Origin: Methanogenium sp. S4BF
Lineage (GTDB): Archaea; Halobacteriota; Methanomicrobia; Methanomicrobiales; Methanomicrobiaceae
Length of the DNA stretch: 64,000 bases
Direction of reading: 5' to 3'
Assembly (NCBI RefSeq): GCF_029633965.1
Contig: NZ_CP091277.1
Location: 1,671,940 to 1,735,939, forward strand
The stretch's first letter is position 1, and each line of letters begins with the position of its first letter. Shown here in pieces: positions 1,256 to 5,126 of the stretch. The notes under the pieces were generated by a model. It did not search any database. It saw only the letters and a program-made list of their open reading frames with translations, and had not been told where the DNA came from. Both the position numbers and the translations under genes were made by a program.

Positions 1256-2644
1256 TCAGATAAAGACCGAATCAAATGAGAGAGAGACGTGGTAATCCCC
1301 GGCCAGGCAGGAATGAATATCGGGAACCGGCTGGTTCAGGATGAGCGGCTCAATGGTGAGACCACCGGAATCGTCTTCCCAGATGGGAAATGTGAGTACG
1401 ACTTCCGAACAATTCAGGTTTTGATACTCAAAGGCGTCCCCACCCTTCACCTGAAGCGGAAGAGAAAGCGTATAGCCGTCTGAAGCAAGGAAGCCAGGCA
1501 GAAGTTCATTCGTATCACACACCGTAATCTCAACCGCCGTCACATCCGGATCATTGGTCTCAATATCAAAGGTGACGGATTCCTCATTGGGACCCTCTTC
1601 CAAGGTGCCAAAGGAAATATCACCCACGATATTGCAGACGTACCAATACTCTTCGCTTCCACCCCCATCATCTGAAGATGGCTCCACGGTTTCGTTTTCC
1701 ACGACAGGAACATCAACGCTCCTGTTAACATAGACAAAACCAGAGATACCCTCAATGTCCATTACAGTGCCATTTTCATCATCCATTTGGTGAATGGTGA
1801 CTATTATGGGAGACACACCCGGAGTAATACCCCTTACATGCATTGATGCCAGCAGGGTCGTGTCCACGCTCTCATTCACCATCTGAGAATCACCCGTCAC
1901 CTGCAGATTCACCGAAGAATTGGGGAAGGTAATATTTTCGAAGGGGGTCACCCACGAGGGGAATTCTACACCAACCCATTCTGCCACGGACGCATTTTCA
2001 ATCGAGAGAGTAAGATTGCACACAGAGAGTCCCTGAGTCACTGCATCAGAGGTTACATTAACAACCTCTTCTGCGCCGGTTTCCACGGTGACATTGAGTA
2101 TACGTACTCCCGGAACATCCACACCATCTTCCACAGGATCATCTGCAGGAGGGTTGTCCGTTGGTGGAACGGCGACACTCTCGTTGACAGAAATCACACC
2201 GGCCATGCACTCAACATCCATCATCGTGCCGTTGCCATCATAGAACTGATGAACGGATATTGCCACAGGAGATTCTCCCGCACCAATGCCCCGCACACGC
2301 AGAGTTGCAAGAAGCACAGGTACGGGAACTGCTTCAGACGATTGGGATTCGTCCACTCCCTTCAGATCAACCAGCGATGCGGGAAAGGTAGTGTTCTCAG
2401 AAGATATGACCCATTCAGGAAATTCAACCCCGGTAAACTCAGCTACAGACCCATTCTCCAGTGAGAGAGTAAGATTGTAGATGCTGATTCCCGCTGGCGC
2501 TGCATCAAGGGCCACAACAATCACTTCTTCTTCACCGGCACCGACCGTGACATTTGTCATGTTCACGCTCAGAGCAGCCCCCGCAGTGCAGCACACCGCC
2601 GCAAGGCAGAACAGGGAAAGCATGACAACGTTCAGTGCCTGCAT
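1256..2644 (-). CDS. Secreted protein with two cohesin-like repeats
   Basis: 462 residues with a signal peptide (first ~24 residues, ending 'CCTAGAALS'). Two homologous beta-rich modules follow, about residues 27-155 and 180-310. Each runs 'G.EE.V.V..DA...G.S..NLTLS.ENGSVAE..GVEFP.WV...EN.TFP.S' and ends in an 'ISVHQ.YD.NGT' type strand. The spacing and the 'fP.W' feature recall cohesin/carbohydrate-surface beta-sandwiches, but the assignment is by pattern only. A Pro/Asp/Val linker joins them. A third, different domain (330-462, 'GDISFGTLEEG...') ends the protein. No membrane anchor is visible, so it may bind other surface proteins. It is the last gene of a four-gene minus-strand operon (5126 to 1256). 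Confidence 0.8.
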   Translation of the reverse strand: MQALNVVMLSLFCLAAVCCTAGAALSVNMTNVTVGAGEEEVIVVALDAAPAGISIYNLTLSLENGSVAEFTGVEFPEWVISSENTTFPASLVDLKGVDESQSSEAVPVPVLLATLRVRGIGAGESPVAISVHQFYDGNGTMMDVECMAGVISVNESVAVPPTDNPPADDPVEDGVDVPGVRILNVTVETGAEEVVNVTSDAVTQGLSVCNLTLSIENASVAEWVGVEFPSWVTPFENITFPNSSVNLQVTGDSQMVNESVDTTLLASMHVRGITPGVSPIIVTIHQMDDENGTVMDIEGISGFVYVNRSVDVPVVENETVEPSSDDGGGSEEYWYVCNIVGDISFGTLEEGPNEESVTFDIETNDPDVTAVEITVCDTNELLPGFLASDGYTLSLPLQVKGGDAFEYQNLNCSEVVLTFPIWEDDSGGLTIEPLILNQPVPDIHSCLAGDYHVSLSFDSVFI

Positions 2645-2687
2645 CTGCCCACCTCCCGGAAAATGATCCCCACATTTTCAGGAATTT

Positions 2688-3194
2688 TCATTTGGAACAA
2701 TCTCCTTCCCAGCCCCAGTCCCAGGCCCATCCCCGACAGTGGCGCCATCTCCAGCGCCAGCAGTTGTTATCAGAATCTTCTTTCTCAGGGGTAGTAAACT
2801 GGTATTCGTCCGAGACAGCTGCTTCATCCCGATCCATCACGGACAGGACACGGAAATAGTATGTCTCGTCCGGGGTGAGGTCTTCAATCAATACCGTATG
2901 CTCATACACCAGCTGGAATATGTCACCAGATGCCTGGAAGGAATAGTCCTCAAACACGGGACGGGACTCAGTATCATACCCAACCCGCGAGATAGACTTC
3001 CCGTTGGTCTTCCACACAATCTCCACCGCGTCGCAGGTTACATCGACGACATGCACATCATAGATCCAGAGCGGGACGTGCCCCGTAATAACAACAGACG
3101 CAGAATCAGATGGGGCGGCTCCTGTGGCTCCTCCGGTACTGGCAAGCACGACGCCAATACACACAAAAAGAAAGAGAAGGATTTTGCCCCTCAT
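2688..3194 (-). CDS. Secreted fibronectin type III protein with Trp-rich tail
   Basis: 168 residues. Signal peptide (about 1-26, 'LLFLFVCIGVVLASTGGATGAA'). A single fibronectin type III-like domain follows at about 45-137 ('VTCDAVEIVWKTNGKSIS', 'H.V.IEDLTPDETYYFRVLSVM', ending 'YQFTTPEKE'). The last 25 residues are very unusual: Trp alternates with other residues (WRWRWRHC..WAWDWGW). The +1 frame of the same DNA instead encodes a Gly/Ala/Thr-rich linker (TAGAGDGATVGDGPGTGAG), so a frameshift is possible. The gene starts 3 bases after the preceding DUF916-like gene and is co-transcribed with it. Confidence 0.75.
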   Translation of the reverse strand: MRGKILLFLFVCIGVVLASTGGATGAAPSDSASVVITGHVPLWIYDVHVVDVTCDAVEIVWKTNGKSISRVGYDTESRPVFEDYSFQASGDIFQLVYEHTVLIEDLTPDETYYFRVLSVMDRDEAAVSDEYQFTTPEKEDSDNNCWRWRWRHCRGWAWDWGWEGDCSK

Positions 3195-3197
3195 CTC

Positions 3198-4571
3198 TCA
3201 GCGCTCCCGCCGCATCTTCAGGCCGACCGCGACCACAAGGAGGGCTGCAAGGCTCAGGATGGGAGACAGCGGGGTTGATTCCTGGCTGCCGGTTGTGGAT
3301 CCTGTATTTCCATCACTACTTGACGCGAGAACTGCCCACATACTAAAATGATTGGTACTTGTTGTGAGAGTCATCTCATTTTCATTCACCTTGGTCGGCA
3401 TGACTTCCCACTGATGCTCAGCCTCATTAAAGAAACCAAGTTTAAGAAGCGAAGGTTTTCCTCCCGCCACTGCGAGGTCATCCTCAGAATATCTGACAAT
3501 CAATGTTGCATCTTTACTCAGTAGACCGGAGAGCCCGTTCACACAGAAGCAGGTCGTGCCGAGTTTCACATCTGGGTTAGTACTCGGAAGATCGCTCTTT
3601 TCGACCGCTTTCAGCGACACTTCTGTATCTCCGAATACTGCTCCCTGAGGGAAGCTAATGCTACATCTACCATCGGAGGAGGCAAGTTCTGTTGGACTCC
3701 CTGGGCTCACGATGACTGAACATCTAGCAAAGGGCGGCACATATTCTTCACTGACTTCAAATGAGGTGCTCATTTCATCGATCAGTGCACCATCTTCAAA
3801 CAATATTTTTGAATTTACTGTATATACGCCCAAGTCGATCGGACCAACATATTGTTGTTCAAATTTCTGAATACTCATGGGAAGAAGCATGGTATCTGTT
3901 GGATCAGTAGTAATTTCCTCGAATAATTCATCATTTTGGTTGAAAATTTCAATACGGTTAATCAAATGGCCATAGTAATAATTTCCAGTGTTTTCAAACA
4001 TCGTTGAAATTTTTAGAGGTTGACTATCTGTCACATCTCCAATCGTTATTTCAGAAATTTTTCCCGTTTTAATAATCTCTTCACCCGAAATTGTTATCAA
4101 AACAGGAATGTCCACAGCTGTAGAGAATCCTACAGATCCTGAACCTGAAGGTAGTGTGTAAATATGAATCATTGCATATCTACCTCCTGTCCCAACATCA
4201 CGTGGCAAATCAATATTTGCTCGAACAGTTTGAGTTTCACCGGGATTCAAATGTATTGATACCTTATCCAGAGAAATGTATTCACGAGCGGAGTATGGAC
4301 TGTTGTCTTCAGATGGAACAATTCGCACAGTTTCACCGGATATAATATTGGATAACCCATGAACTTCGATGGAAATATCCACAGGTGATTCGGTATCAAT
4401 TAGACTCAGTGTCATGGTATGAGTGGCCGCATCACCAGGTGACATCTCTGCAATGAATTTAACATTTGTAACTTTAAGGCCAGCAGAAGCAGAATTTATA
4501 CAAAGGACAAGAAGGAGCAATAAGCAAAAAATAAGTCGTAAATTTCTTTTTTTATCGGTATCAGATTCCAT
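3198..4571 (-). CDS. DUF916-like membrane-anchored surface protein
   Basis: 457 residues: signal peptide/TM (about 12-31), then an immunoglobulin-like region (about 33-160). That region reads 'MSPGDAATHTMTLSLID...VDISIEVHG' and 'VSIHLNPGETQTVRANIDLPRDVGTGGRYAMIHI', which recalls the peptidoglycan-binding DUF916 half of WxL-interacting proteins. A second beta region (170-275) is followed by a ZU5-like domain (about 285-415: 'SSDGRCSISFPQGAVFGDTEVSLKAV', 'EHQWEVMPT', 'NHFSMWAVL'). A Ser/Thr linker then leads to a C-terminal TM segment and a basic MRRER tail, a surface anchor. It lies between a small secreted protein and the FnIII gene. Family calls rest on motif pattern; lower A+T-rich codons at its 5' half differ from its neighbours. 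Confidence 0.8.
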   Translation of the reverse strand: MESDTDKKRNLRLIFCLLLLLVLCINSASAGLKVTNVKFIAEMSPGDAATHTMTLSLIDTESPVDISIEVHGLSNIISGETVRIVPSEDNSPYSAREYISLDKVSIHLNPGETQTVRANIDLPRDVGTGGRYAMIHIYTLPSGSGSVGFSTAVDIPVLITISGEEIIKTGKISEITIGDVTDSQPLKISTMFENTGNYYYGHLINRIEIFNQNDELFEEITTDPTDTMLLPMSIQKFEQQYVGPIDLGVYTVNSKILFEDGALIDEMSTSFEVSEEYVPPFARCSVIVSPGSPTELASSDGRCSISFPQGAVFGDTEVSLKAVEKSDLPSTNPDVKLGTTCFCVNGLSGLLSKDATLIVRYSEDDLAVAGGKPSLLKLGFFNEAEHQWEVMPTKVNENEMTLTTSTNHFSMWAVLASSSDGNTGSTTGSQESTPLSPILSLAALLVVAVGLKMRRER

Positions 4572-4649
4572 AATTTAAACCTCATTATAATCTCATCGTT
4601 AAAATAAATCTATAAATGGGTGAATATGATTAACCCATTTATGGAAACT

Positions 4650-5126
4650 CTAATCCACGTCTGCGGAAACTGCAAAGGTTATAGTGATACCGTATTTATC
4701 AGGTTTATCACCGTACTCAGTGGTTTGTTCAAAATAGACATTTTTACTGTACTGGCCTGTTGGAGCCGCACCAGATACAACAGAATAACTTGTTCCGAGC
4801 GGTGTTTTTACGGAAGAGCTATCACCAATATAAATCCCCTGTATTAAGGTAGCCGGGGTCGTTAATGTCGTACTCAGCATTTTTCCATCATTAGTGCCAG
4901 TTGCCGTGCAATCCCAGTCAATATTTGAACTTACTTCAATTTTCGGTACACTGGTAGACTGAGTACCAACATTCGCAAATGTCCAGTCAATATCGGCGCC
5001 TTCAGTAACACTAATTGAGAGAGAAGACTGAACCTCTGCATCAATTTGAACTGTGTCTCCAGCCATAACCCCCGGCACCATCGCCAGAGCAACAAGCAGC
5101 ACTGCTGCTATAACAAACTTTTTCAT
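4650..5126 (-). CDS. Small secreted beta-rich surface protein (WxL-like)
   Basis: 158 residues with a clean signal peptide (MKKFVIAAVLLVALAMVPGVMA, cleaved before GDTVQ). The mature part is a beta-sandwich-like domain with 'SLSISVTEGADIDWTFANVGTQS', 'VSSNIDWDCTATGTNDG' and a C-terminal 'YGITITFAVSADVD'. Many tiny Gram-positive and archaeal surface proteins encoded beside DUF916 proteins have this size and end in a similar beta strand. No LPXTG or PGF anchor is present. AAAGGAGAATTG lies just upstream of the ATG, a strong ribosome-binding site. It is the first gene of the operon and probably the most expressed. Confidence 0.8.
   Translation of the reverse strand: MKKFVIAAVLLVALAMVPGVMAGDTVQIDAEVQSSLSISVTEGADIDWTFANVGTQSTSVPKIEVSSNIDWDCTATGTNDGKMLSTTLTTPATLIQGIYIGDSSSVKTPLGTSYSVVSGAAPTGQYSKNVYFEQTTEYGDKPDKYGITITFAVSADVD

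What the first reader, a model, noticed from the sequence alone, without database searches (positions are those of the whole stretch)
1256..5126. Archaeal operon resembling WxL/DUF916 surface complexes
Four minus-strand secreted genes are tightly spaced: a small beta-rich protein, a DUF916-like protein with a ZU5-like domain and a membrane anchor, an FnIII protein, and a cohesin-like protein. In Gram-positive bacteria, small WxL proteins and DUF916 proteins are encoded together and form a surface complex. A corresponding complex in a methanogen would be noteworthy, and the cohesin-like repeats add a possible docking function.
Basis: partly seen in the sequence, partly recalled or inferred. Interest (0 to 1): 0.55.

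Follow-up and report, generated by a model that had tools for sequence, protein, structure and literature searches.

The report
Archaeal WxL-like cell-surface protein complex
A methane-producing archaeon carries an operon for secreted proteins laid out like a surface complex known from Gram-positive bacteria, although its group of archaea has no peptidoglycan wall, which suggests that wall binding is not the core job of that complex.

Summary
The four-gene operon is real. P2 is a distant homologue of bacterial WxLIP (DUF916-DUF3324): its predicted structure has E. faecium WxLIP as best PDB match (Foldseek E 4.9e-12; Z 18.8 over 231 residues, next unrelated row 13.5), and profile comparison agrees (92% with Firmicutes, 98% with Actinobacteria; controls at most 1.1%). 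P2 also has a ZU5-like domain and a C-terminal hydrophobic anchor. P1 belongs to an unnamed domain family; P4, called cohesin-like, ends in a divergent copy of it (leave-out E 7e-5), giving the bacterial layout: small subunit, WxLIP, large subunit. All 24 genomes with P1 domains (of 199 searched in the order) also carry P2, and 52 of 53 P1 matches lie within 5 kb of it; 31 of 42 P2 genes have a P1-domain gene just upstream. P1 lacks the dual WxL motif and any Pfam WxL match, so WxL homology is unproven. Likely mechanism (inferred): P2, in the membrane, holds P1/P4 by strand complementation. The cohesin and docking ideas found no support. No archaeal case appeared in my literature searches. New variant of a known kind.

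The parts
4650..5126 (-). P1, 158 aa small secreted protein: signal peptide plus one P1 domain (the 'small WxL' position)
   Evidence: Found by a profile built without this genus at E 3.4e-14; AlphaFold2 pLDDT 81; PDB matches are pilin-type folds
3198..4571 (-). P2, 457 aa WxLIP-like protein: two Ig domains, ZU5-like domain, C-terminal hydrophobic anchor
4089..4481 (-). P2 first Ig domain (residues about 31-161), DUF916/PGBD-like
   Evidence: Model aligns to 9i25_C over 29-275; hhalign covers both domains
3744..4070 (-). P2 second Ig domain (residues about 168-276), DUF3324/HBD-like
3321..3731 (-). P2 ZU5-like domain (residues 281-417)
   Evidence: Ankyrin ZU5 3f59, Z 12.6, 121 residues; 19 of 36 homologues in A1 have more than 100 residues here
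3204..3260 (-). P2 C-terminal hydrophobic helix (residues 438-456), probable membrane anchor
   Evidence: Sequence inspection; helix in the model at low pLDDT
2688..3194 (-). P3, 168 aa secreted FnIII-type protein
   Evidence: Pfam Pur_ac_phosph_N 1.7e-9; homologue in the same position in L046
3075..3095 (-). P3 N-terminal strand motif (residues 34-40) shared with other cluster proteins
   Evidence: regex written after inspection
1256..2644 (-). P4, 462 aa secreted protein: two repeats plus a C-terminal P1-type domain (the 'large WxL' position)
1256..1672 (-). P4 C-terminal P1-type domain (residues about 325-462)
   Evidence: Leave-out profile E 7e-5 here, 4.3e-6 for the L046 copy; best decoy 6.3 bits against 20.5
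2183..2575 (-). P4 repeat 1, unassigned beta-type domain
   Evidence: 48% identical to repeat 2; no Pfam or PDB match
1727..2119 (-). P4 repeat 2, unassigned beta-type domain

Best explanation
The operon encodes an archaeal counterpart of the bacterial WxL-WxLIP surface complex. P2 is a distant homologue of WxLIP (shown by fold and profiles), probably held in the membrane by its C-terminal segment, with two Ig domains and an extra ZU5-like domain outside. [quoted passage not shown] shown: tight linkage to P2). Inferred: the P1 domain is an Ig-type sandwich that needs a partner strand; P2 supplies or guides that strand, as WxLIP is predicted to do for WxL, and so binds P1 and P4 to the cell. 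The front part of P4 and the FnIII protein P3 would face outward as adhesive modules. Because archaea of this order have no peptidoglycan (established knowledge, not tested here), the shared function would be this protein-protein assembly rather than wall binding.
For: P2 model: best PDB match E. faecium WxLIP (Foldseek 4.9e-12; Z 18.8, 231 residues). P2 profile: EfmWxLIP1 ranks first in the PDB by sequence, E 0.041 over positions 43-251. hhalign 91.9% / 7e-7 with 9 Firmicutes WxLIP and 98.4% / 5e-15 with 6 actinobacterial DUF916; unrelated and reversed controls with the same query at most 1.1%; 0 of 60 column shuffles reach the Firmicutes score. P1-type domain in P4. Linkage: 24 of 24 P1 genomes carry P2; 52 of 53 P1 matches within 5 kb; 31 of 42 P2 genes with a P1-domain gene within 250 nt upstream; five genomes outside the order keep the linkage. 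In bacteria WxL genes end 55-85 nt upstream of WxLIP in four of the nine Firmicutes loci fetched. WxLIP is predicted to complete the WxL sandwich with a strand (PMC10599100, results section), and a WxLIP-WxL complex is solved (9i25).
Against: P2 is below the Pfam cutoffs, and 0 of 199 genomes exceed the PF06030 cutoff; other Ig families reach similar or better E-values across the 36 homologues (fn3_5 1.8e-5, DUF4832 1.3e-7). The conserved bacterial N-terminal WxLIP motif is absent in 36 of 36 archaeal homologues. P1: no Pfam WxL match in 50 of 50, dual WxL in 2 of 52, hhalign 20.5% against actinobacterial WxL-like proteins while an FnIII control gives 22.7%, and 0.4% against Firmicutes WxL. 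The P1 model's listed PDB rows do not include the WxL chain 9i25_A. No interaction was tested. At least four P2 genes (L060, L063, L065, L067) have no P1 nearby, and P2 lacks a membrane segment in L123-L126.
Confidence: 0.6

Rival explanations
1. A donor-strand filament, TasA- or thread-like: P1 subunits polymerise by inserting an N-terminal strand into the next subunit; P2 acts as membrane-bound chaperone or initiator (PapD or TapA role); P4 and P3 are tip or cap proteins.
For: P1 model matches TLP-1a (3.9e-4), Csu, Fim and Caf pilins, TasA fibre and the Sulfolobus thread. P2's two Ig domains also match fimbrial chaperones (CfaA Z 12.4). A strand motif sits just after the signal peptide in several small, large and FnIII/PKD proteins of these clusters (25 of 261 cluster ORFs, 0 of 301 control ORFs). 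TapA and TasA share their N-terminal residues in the same way (PMC10151520 passages). Clusters outside the order have two to three P1 genes and a P2 without membrane segment.
Against: P2 is far closer to WxLIP than to any chaperone (Z 18.8 against 12.4). P1 matches have Z about 8, which models without a clear match also reach. No usher or TasA-family (PF12389) match in this genome. Window P1, P2 and P4 lack the strand motif regex, which was written after seeing the sequences.
Confidence: 0.25
2. A generic operon of secreted Ig-type adhesins with no specific complex; the P2-WxLIP resemblance reflects only two Ig domains in tandem.
For: Ig families in general score against P2; Pfam cutoffs are not met.
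Against: WxLIP is the best of 350,542 chains and stands well above other tandem-Ig proteins over both domains; hhalign controls are at background; P1-P2 linkage is near exclusive.
Confidence: 0.1
3. A cohesin-dockerin type scaffold, with the P4 repeats as cohesins.
For: The genome encodes other cohesin-domain proteins, and the P4 repeats look loosely similar by eye.
Against: No Pfam or PDB sequence match, hhalign 0.7%, weak pairwise scores. Dockerins were not searched for.
Confidence: 0.03

Closest known systems
WxL-WxLIP (DUF916-DUF3324) clusters of Firmicutes (csc-type clusters); solved WxLIP 9i1y and WxLIP-long WxL complex 9i25 of E. faecium
   Same: WxLIP homologue with two Ig domains and C-terminal anchor; a small one-domain partner directly upstream; a large partner with the same domain at its C-terminus
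   Different: Archaeal host without peptidoglycan (recalled); extra ZU5-like domain in P2; P1 domain without dual WxL motif or Pfam match; extra FnIII protein; N-terminal WxLIP motif absent
Actinobacterial WxL-like + DUF916 pairs on plasmids (Arthrobacter, Streptomyces, Curtobacterium)
   Same: Small secreted protein followed by DUF916; closest bacterial profile to P2 (98.4%); no WxL motif in 0 of 7 small proteins
   Different: Small proteins match Pfam WxL weakly to significantly, P1 does not
TasA/TapA fibres, archaeal threads (Saci_0406), TLP-1a and chaperone-usher pilins
   Same: Pilin-type predicted fold of P1; two-Ig chaperone-like arrangement of P2; N-terminal strand motif in part of the cluster proteins
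   Different: P2 is closest to WxLIP and membrane-anchored; no usher or PF12389 match in the genome; polymerisation untested

Membership tests
WxLIP (DUF916-DUF3324) | Pfam PF06030 / PF11797 over gathering score | tested here: not met
   P2 15.3 bits against 27.3 for PF06030, no PF11797 hit; 0 of 199 genomes over the PF06030 cutoff
WxLIP (DUF916-DUF3324) | Two tandem Ig domains related in sequence profile and fold to WxLIP | tested here: met
   9i1y, 9i25; 91.9% and 98.4%, controls at most 1.1%
WxLIP (DUF916-DUF3324) | N-terminal motif NQIDKxxxYFDLK (PMC10599100) | tested here: not met
   0 of 36 archaeal, 0 of 6 actinobacterial, 8 of 9 Firmicutes by a loose regex
WxLIP (DUF916-DUF3324) | C-terminal transmembrane helix | tested here: met
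   Hydrophobic segment by inspection, helix 438-456 in the model at low confidence; absent in L123-L126
WxL domain (PF13731) | Two WxL motifs, the second near the C-terminus | tested here: not met
   Two or more in 2 of 52 archaeal P1 domains, none in the last 15 residues of 52
WxL domain (PF13731) | Pfam or profile relation to WxL | tested here: inconclusive
   No PF13731 match in 50 P1 domains or 21 genomes. hhalign with actinobacterial WxL-like proteins 20.5-34.5%, with FnIII control 22.7% and 4.9%, with Firmicutes WxL 0.4%, with out-of-order archaeal P1 alone 1.0%
WxL domain (PF13731) | WxL fold | tested here: inconclusive
   9i25_A is not among the rows shown for the P1 model; no direct superposition possible
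WxL gene cluster | One WxLIP with small and large partner carrying the same C-terminal domain | tested here: met
   with the P1 domain in place of WxL
Chaperone-usher pilus | Usher gene | tested here: not met
   No PF00577 match in this genome
TasA/camelysin | PF12389 match | tested here: not met
   No match in this genome and none among the P1 domains in Pfam
Cohesin (PF00963) | Cohesin profile match of the P4 repeats | tested here: not met
   No Pfam hit (for the L046 copy); weak pairwise scores; fold not tested

The most novel reading that the evidence does not exclude
WxL-WxLIP is one branch of an old, wall-independent strand-complementation module present in Firmicutes, Actinobacteria and Archaea, related in principle to the chaperone-pilin pair. 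In archaea its small subunits, large adhesins and FnIII/PKD partners share an N-terminal strand that serves as a common assembly tag, so that one membrane-anchored WxLIP organises a mixed surface fibre or cluster.
Probability: 0.3. Interest if true: 0.8.

Novelty: new variant of a known kind. Interest (0 to 1): 0.62.

Why it matters
WxL clusters are described as mainly a Firmicutes trait (over 91% of 938 WxL sequences; PMC9772566 passage), and their parts are named for peptidoglycan and host binding. A WxLIP homologue with its own small and large partners in methanogens, which have no peptidoglycan, would point to protein assembly at the surface as the conserved core. It also gives a testable role to a secreted domain family that Pfam and NCBIfam do not name, and methanogens offer peptidoglycan-free cells in which to test it.

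Tried and rejected
Single-sequence searches: P2 against the PDB found nothing; the first genome-contig scan and a viral-contig scan found no relatives. Cohesin for P4: not supported. PF13731 in 21 related genomes: nothing. WxL homology of P1 by profile: suggestive against Actinobacteria, background against Firmicutes; the column-shuffle control is weak because it destroys the strand pattern. A chaperone-usher reading of L124-L126 was considered, but the 1095-1215 aa neighbour consists of DUF11-type repeats. Sigma-70 and terminator scans gave no more than shuffles and do not suit archaea. NCBIfam has no specific family for P1 or P2. In the fold searches the WxL chain 9i25_A does not appear among the 50 rows shown for P1.

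The N-terminal motif was found by eye and the regex written afterwards. Of 25 hits in 261 cluster ORFs, three small-protein hits (L036, L048, L051) lie in the domain's own first strand; window P3 has the motif but had been dropped by my ORF picker, and window P1, P2 and P4 lack it. Rows dropped before counting: five of 41 P2 hits from A1 (L062, L064, L068, L069, second L039 hit) and two of 52 P1 domains from A2. In one search I counted as P2 only the 37 matches at E below 1e-70; weaker matches, ZU5-only matches and an unlisted remainder were left out. One actinobacterial neighbour (L103:4040-4828) was left out of the WxL-like set as unrelated. In one search L057 was left out for lack of upstream sequence.
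Full report
Observation. The window lies in a 2.51 Mb, single-contig genome of a methanogen (MCR alpha E 1.5e-65). Relatives of P2 found with names are Methanoregula, Methanolinea and an unclassified Methanomicrobiales archaeon. Four minus-strand genes stand at the stated coordinates with gaps of 78, 3 and 43 nt. All begin with signal-peptide-like segments (inspection). P3 is FnIII-type. P2 has a ZU5-like third domain and a hydrophobic C-terminus. The cohesin label of P4 was not confirmed.

P2 is a WxLIP homologue. By single-sequence Pfam search the best hit is WxLIP_PGBD, E 0.021, below cutoff. Among 36 homologues from the order, 21 hit WxLIP_PGBD (best 1.9e-4) and 8 WxLIP_HBD (best 0.0077), at E-values that other families also reach or beat (fn3_5 in 22, best 1.8e-5; DUF4832 in 7, best 1.3e-7). 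Over 199 genomes, 10 have a PF06030 match at E 0.01 and none exceeds its cutoff. Stronger tests decide it. The profile of the 36 proteins ranks EfmWxLIP1 first among the PDB sequences (E 0.041, positions 43-251). The AlphaFold2 model (mean pLDDT 84) has E. faecium WxLIP as best Foldseek match (4.9e-12) and best VIA match (Z 18.8, rmsd 4.9, 231 residues), ahead of single-domain rows at 13.5 and the two-domain CfaA chaperone at 12.4. Profile-profile comparison gives 91.9% with nine Firmicutes WxLIP and 98.4% with six actinobacterial DUF916 proteins across both domains; the unrelated and reversed profiles run against the same query stay at 1.1% or less, and 0 of 60 column shuffles reach the Firmicutes score. 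Of the 36 homologues, 17 lack the ZU5 domain (19 have it) and are about as long as bacterial WxLIP (for example 314-346 aa; bacterial 337-365 aa in PMC10599100, results section).

P1 is a domain family, and P4 contains it. Iterated profile searches in 36 fetched neighbourhoods and the window gave 52 such domains, as whole small proteins or at the C-terminus of large ones. A profile built without the P1 and P4 of this genus finds window P1 at E 3.4e-14, window P4 residues 339-456 at E 7e-5 and its L046 relative at 4.3e-6, in 3428 ORFs; the best of 3428 reversed ORFs and 500 shuffled P4 ends scored 6.3 bits against 20.5 for window P4. Three large members scanned carry DUF3344 and PKD domains in front, two of them also CARDB. 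Pfam and NCBIfam have no specific model for the domain.

Linkage. In 199 genomes of the order, 24 have P1 domains and all 24 have P2, which 29 of 199 have (P2 counted at E below 1e-70; hypergeometric 2e-26, ignoring shared ancestry). Of 53 P1 matches 52 lie within 5 kb of a P2 gene and 35 within 1 kb; the other is on a contig without P2. Of 37 P2 matches 28 have a P1 domain within 1 kb. The genome search missed at least one P1 (L035:8608-9195, found), so counts are lower bounds. In the fetched loci, 31 of 42 P2 genes with at least 400 nt upstream have a P1-domain gene ending within 250 nt upstream on the same strand, and 36 of 42 have one somewhere in the stretch. The eleven exceptions: L039, L052, L060, L063, L065 and L067 with none counted, and L044, L050, L056 (second copy), L068 and L127 (second copy) with one further away; in L044 and L052 a P1 gene found overlaps the called start of P2 and was not counted. 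In a draw of 392 genomes of the phylum, 15 have P1 domains; five of them lie outside the order (G233, G292, G376, G427, G446) and all five also have P2. Their fetched stretches show two to three P1-domain genes around a P2, and in four of them P2 ends after the second Ig domain without a membrane segment.

Bacterial comparison. From PLSDB plasmids I took nine Firmicutes, six actinobacterial and one Deinococcus DUF916 loci. In L095, L096, L098 and L106 an annotated WxL gene ends 55 to 85 nt upstream of WxLIP; in L097 and L101 an otherwise named small gene does; in L100 and L102 the WxL genes follow it; L099 shows none. Of five actinobacterial small proteins scanned, the four upstream of DUF916 match Pfam WxL (E 9.1e-4 to 4.2e-6, one over cutoff) and the one downstream does not; as a set they match Firmicutes WxL at 96.8%, although none of 7 has a WxL motif. 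Archaeal P1 against them gives 20.5% (34.5% with 11 out-of-order members added; those members alone 1.0%), aligned over the first half with the tryptophan in register, but an FnIII control reaches 22.7%, apparently through the shared N-terminal segment, and Firmicutes WxL gives 0.4%. So P1 as a WxL homologue is suggestive, not shown.

Mechanism. In bacteria a WxLIP strand is predicted to complete the WxL sandwich (PMC10599100), and a WxLIP-WxL complex is now in the PDB (9i25). The P1 model (pLDDT 81) resembles pilins that need a donor strand: TLP-1a, Csu, Fim, Caf, TasA fibre and the archaeal thread (threads: PMC9715654 passages), at Z values that unmatched models also reach. A short strand motif sits near the N-terminus of small, large and FnIII/PKD proteins of these clusters (25 of 261 cluster ORFs, 0 of 301 control ORFs of the same loci; window P3 also has it, window P1, P2 and P4 do not; regex written after inspection). 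The model I think most likely is that P2, fixed in the membrane, completes and holds P1 and P4 by strand complementation; whether P1 also polymerises is open.

Novelty. Five paper searches listed no title or abstract start that reports an archaeal WxL or WxLIP; one search listed 30 of 54 papers. The two most relevant papers were seen in part (PMC10599100: abstract and results; PMC9772566: passages). I file this as a new variant: P2 is a WxLIP homologue that fails two defining sequence features, and P1 fails the WxL motif test.

Noticed in passing
window 2691-2759 (P3 C-terminus); L046 6822-7322: P3 ends in a Cys- and Trp-rich tail (about 23 residues, W alternating with R, G or D), conserved in both genus members; among the cluster ORFs only one further, probably spurious ORF has six or more W in its last 40 residues.
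   Followed up: partly
window 3732-5126: P1 and the two-Ig half of P2 are AT-rich: 38.7% GC against 55.7% for the window; 0.3% of 1.3-kb windows are as low. Possibly acquired.
   Followed up: partly
L060, L063, L065, L067: Short P2 homologues without a nearby P1, in a conserved neighbourhood beside a 401-aa gene (TraB-like, label recalled); perhaps a separate use of the fold.
   Followed up: no
L091, L092, L093, L094, L103, L104: Arthrobacter, Streptomyces and Curtobacterium plasmids carry a WxL-like small gene directly before a DUF916 gene.
   Followed up: partly
hit H15, CP069367.1 101824-102465: A record labelled Klebsiella pneumoniae plasmid holds an unannotated WxLIP match at 71.6% identity; contamination or misassembly seems likely.
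   Followed up: no
G000 C1:919866-920639: The genome has an archaeosortase (TIGR04125, E 7e-68), but the C-terminus of window P2 shows no PGF motif, whereas some homologues match PGF-CTERM.
   Followed up: no
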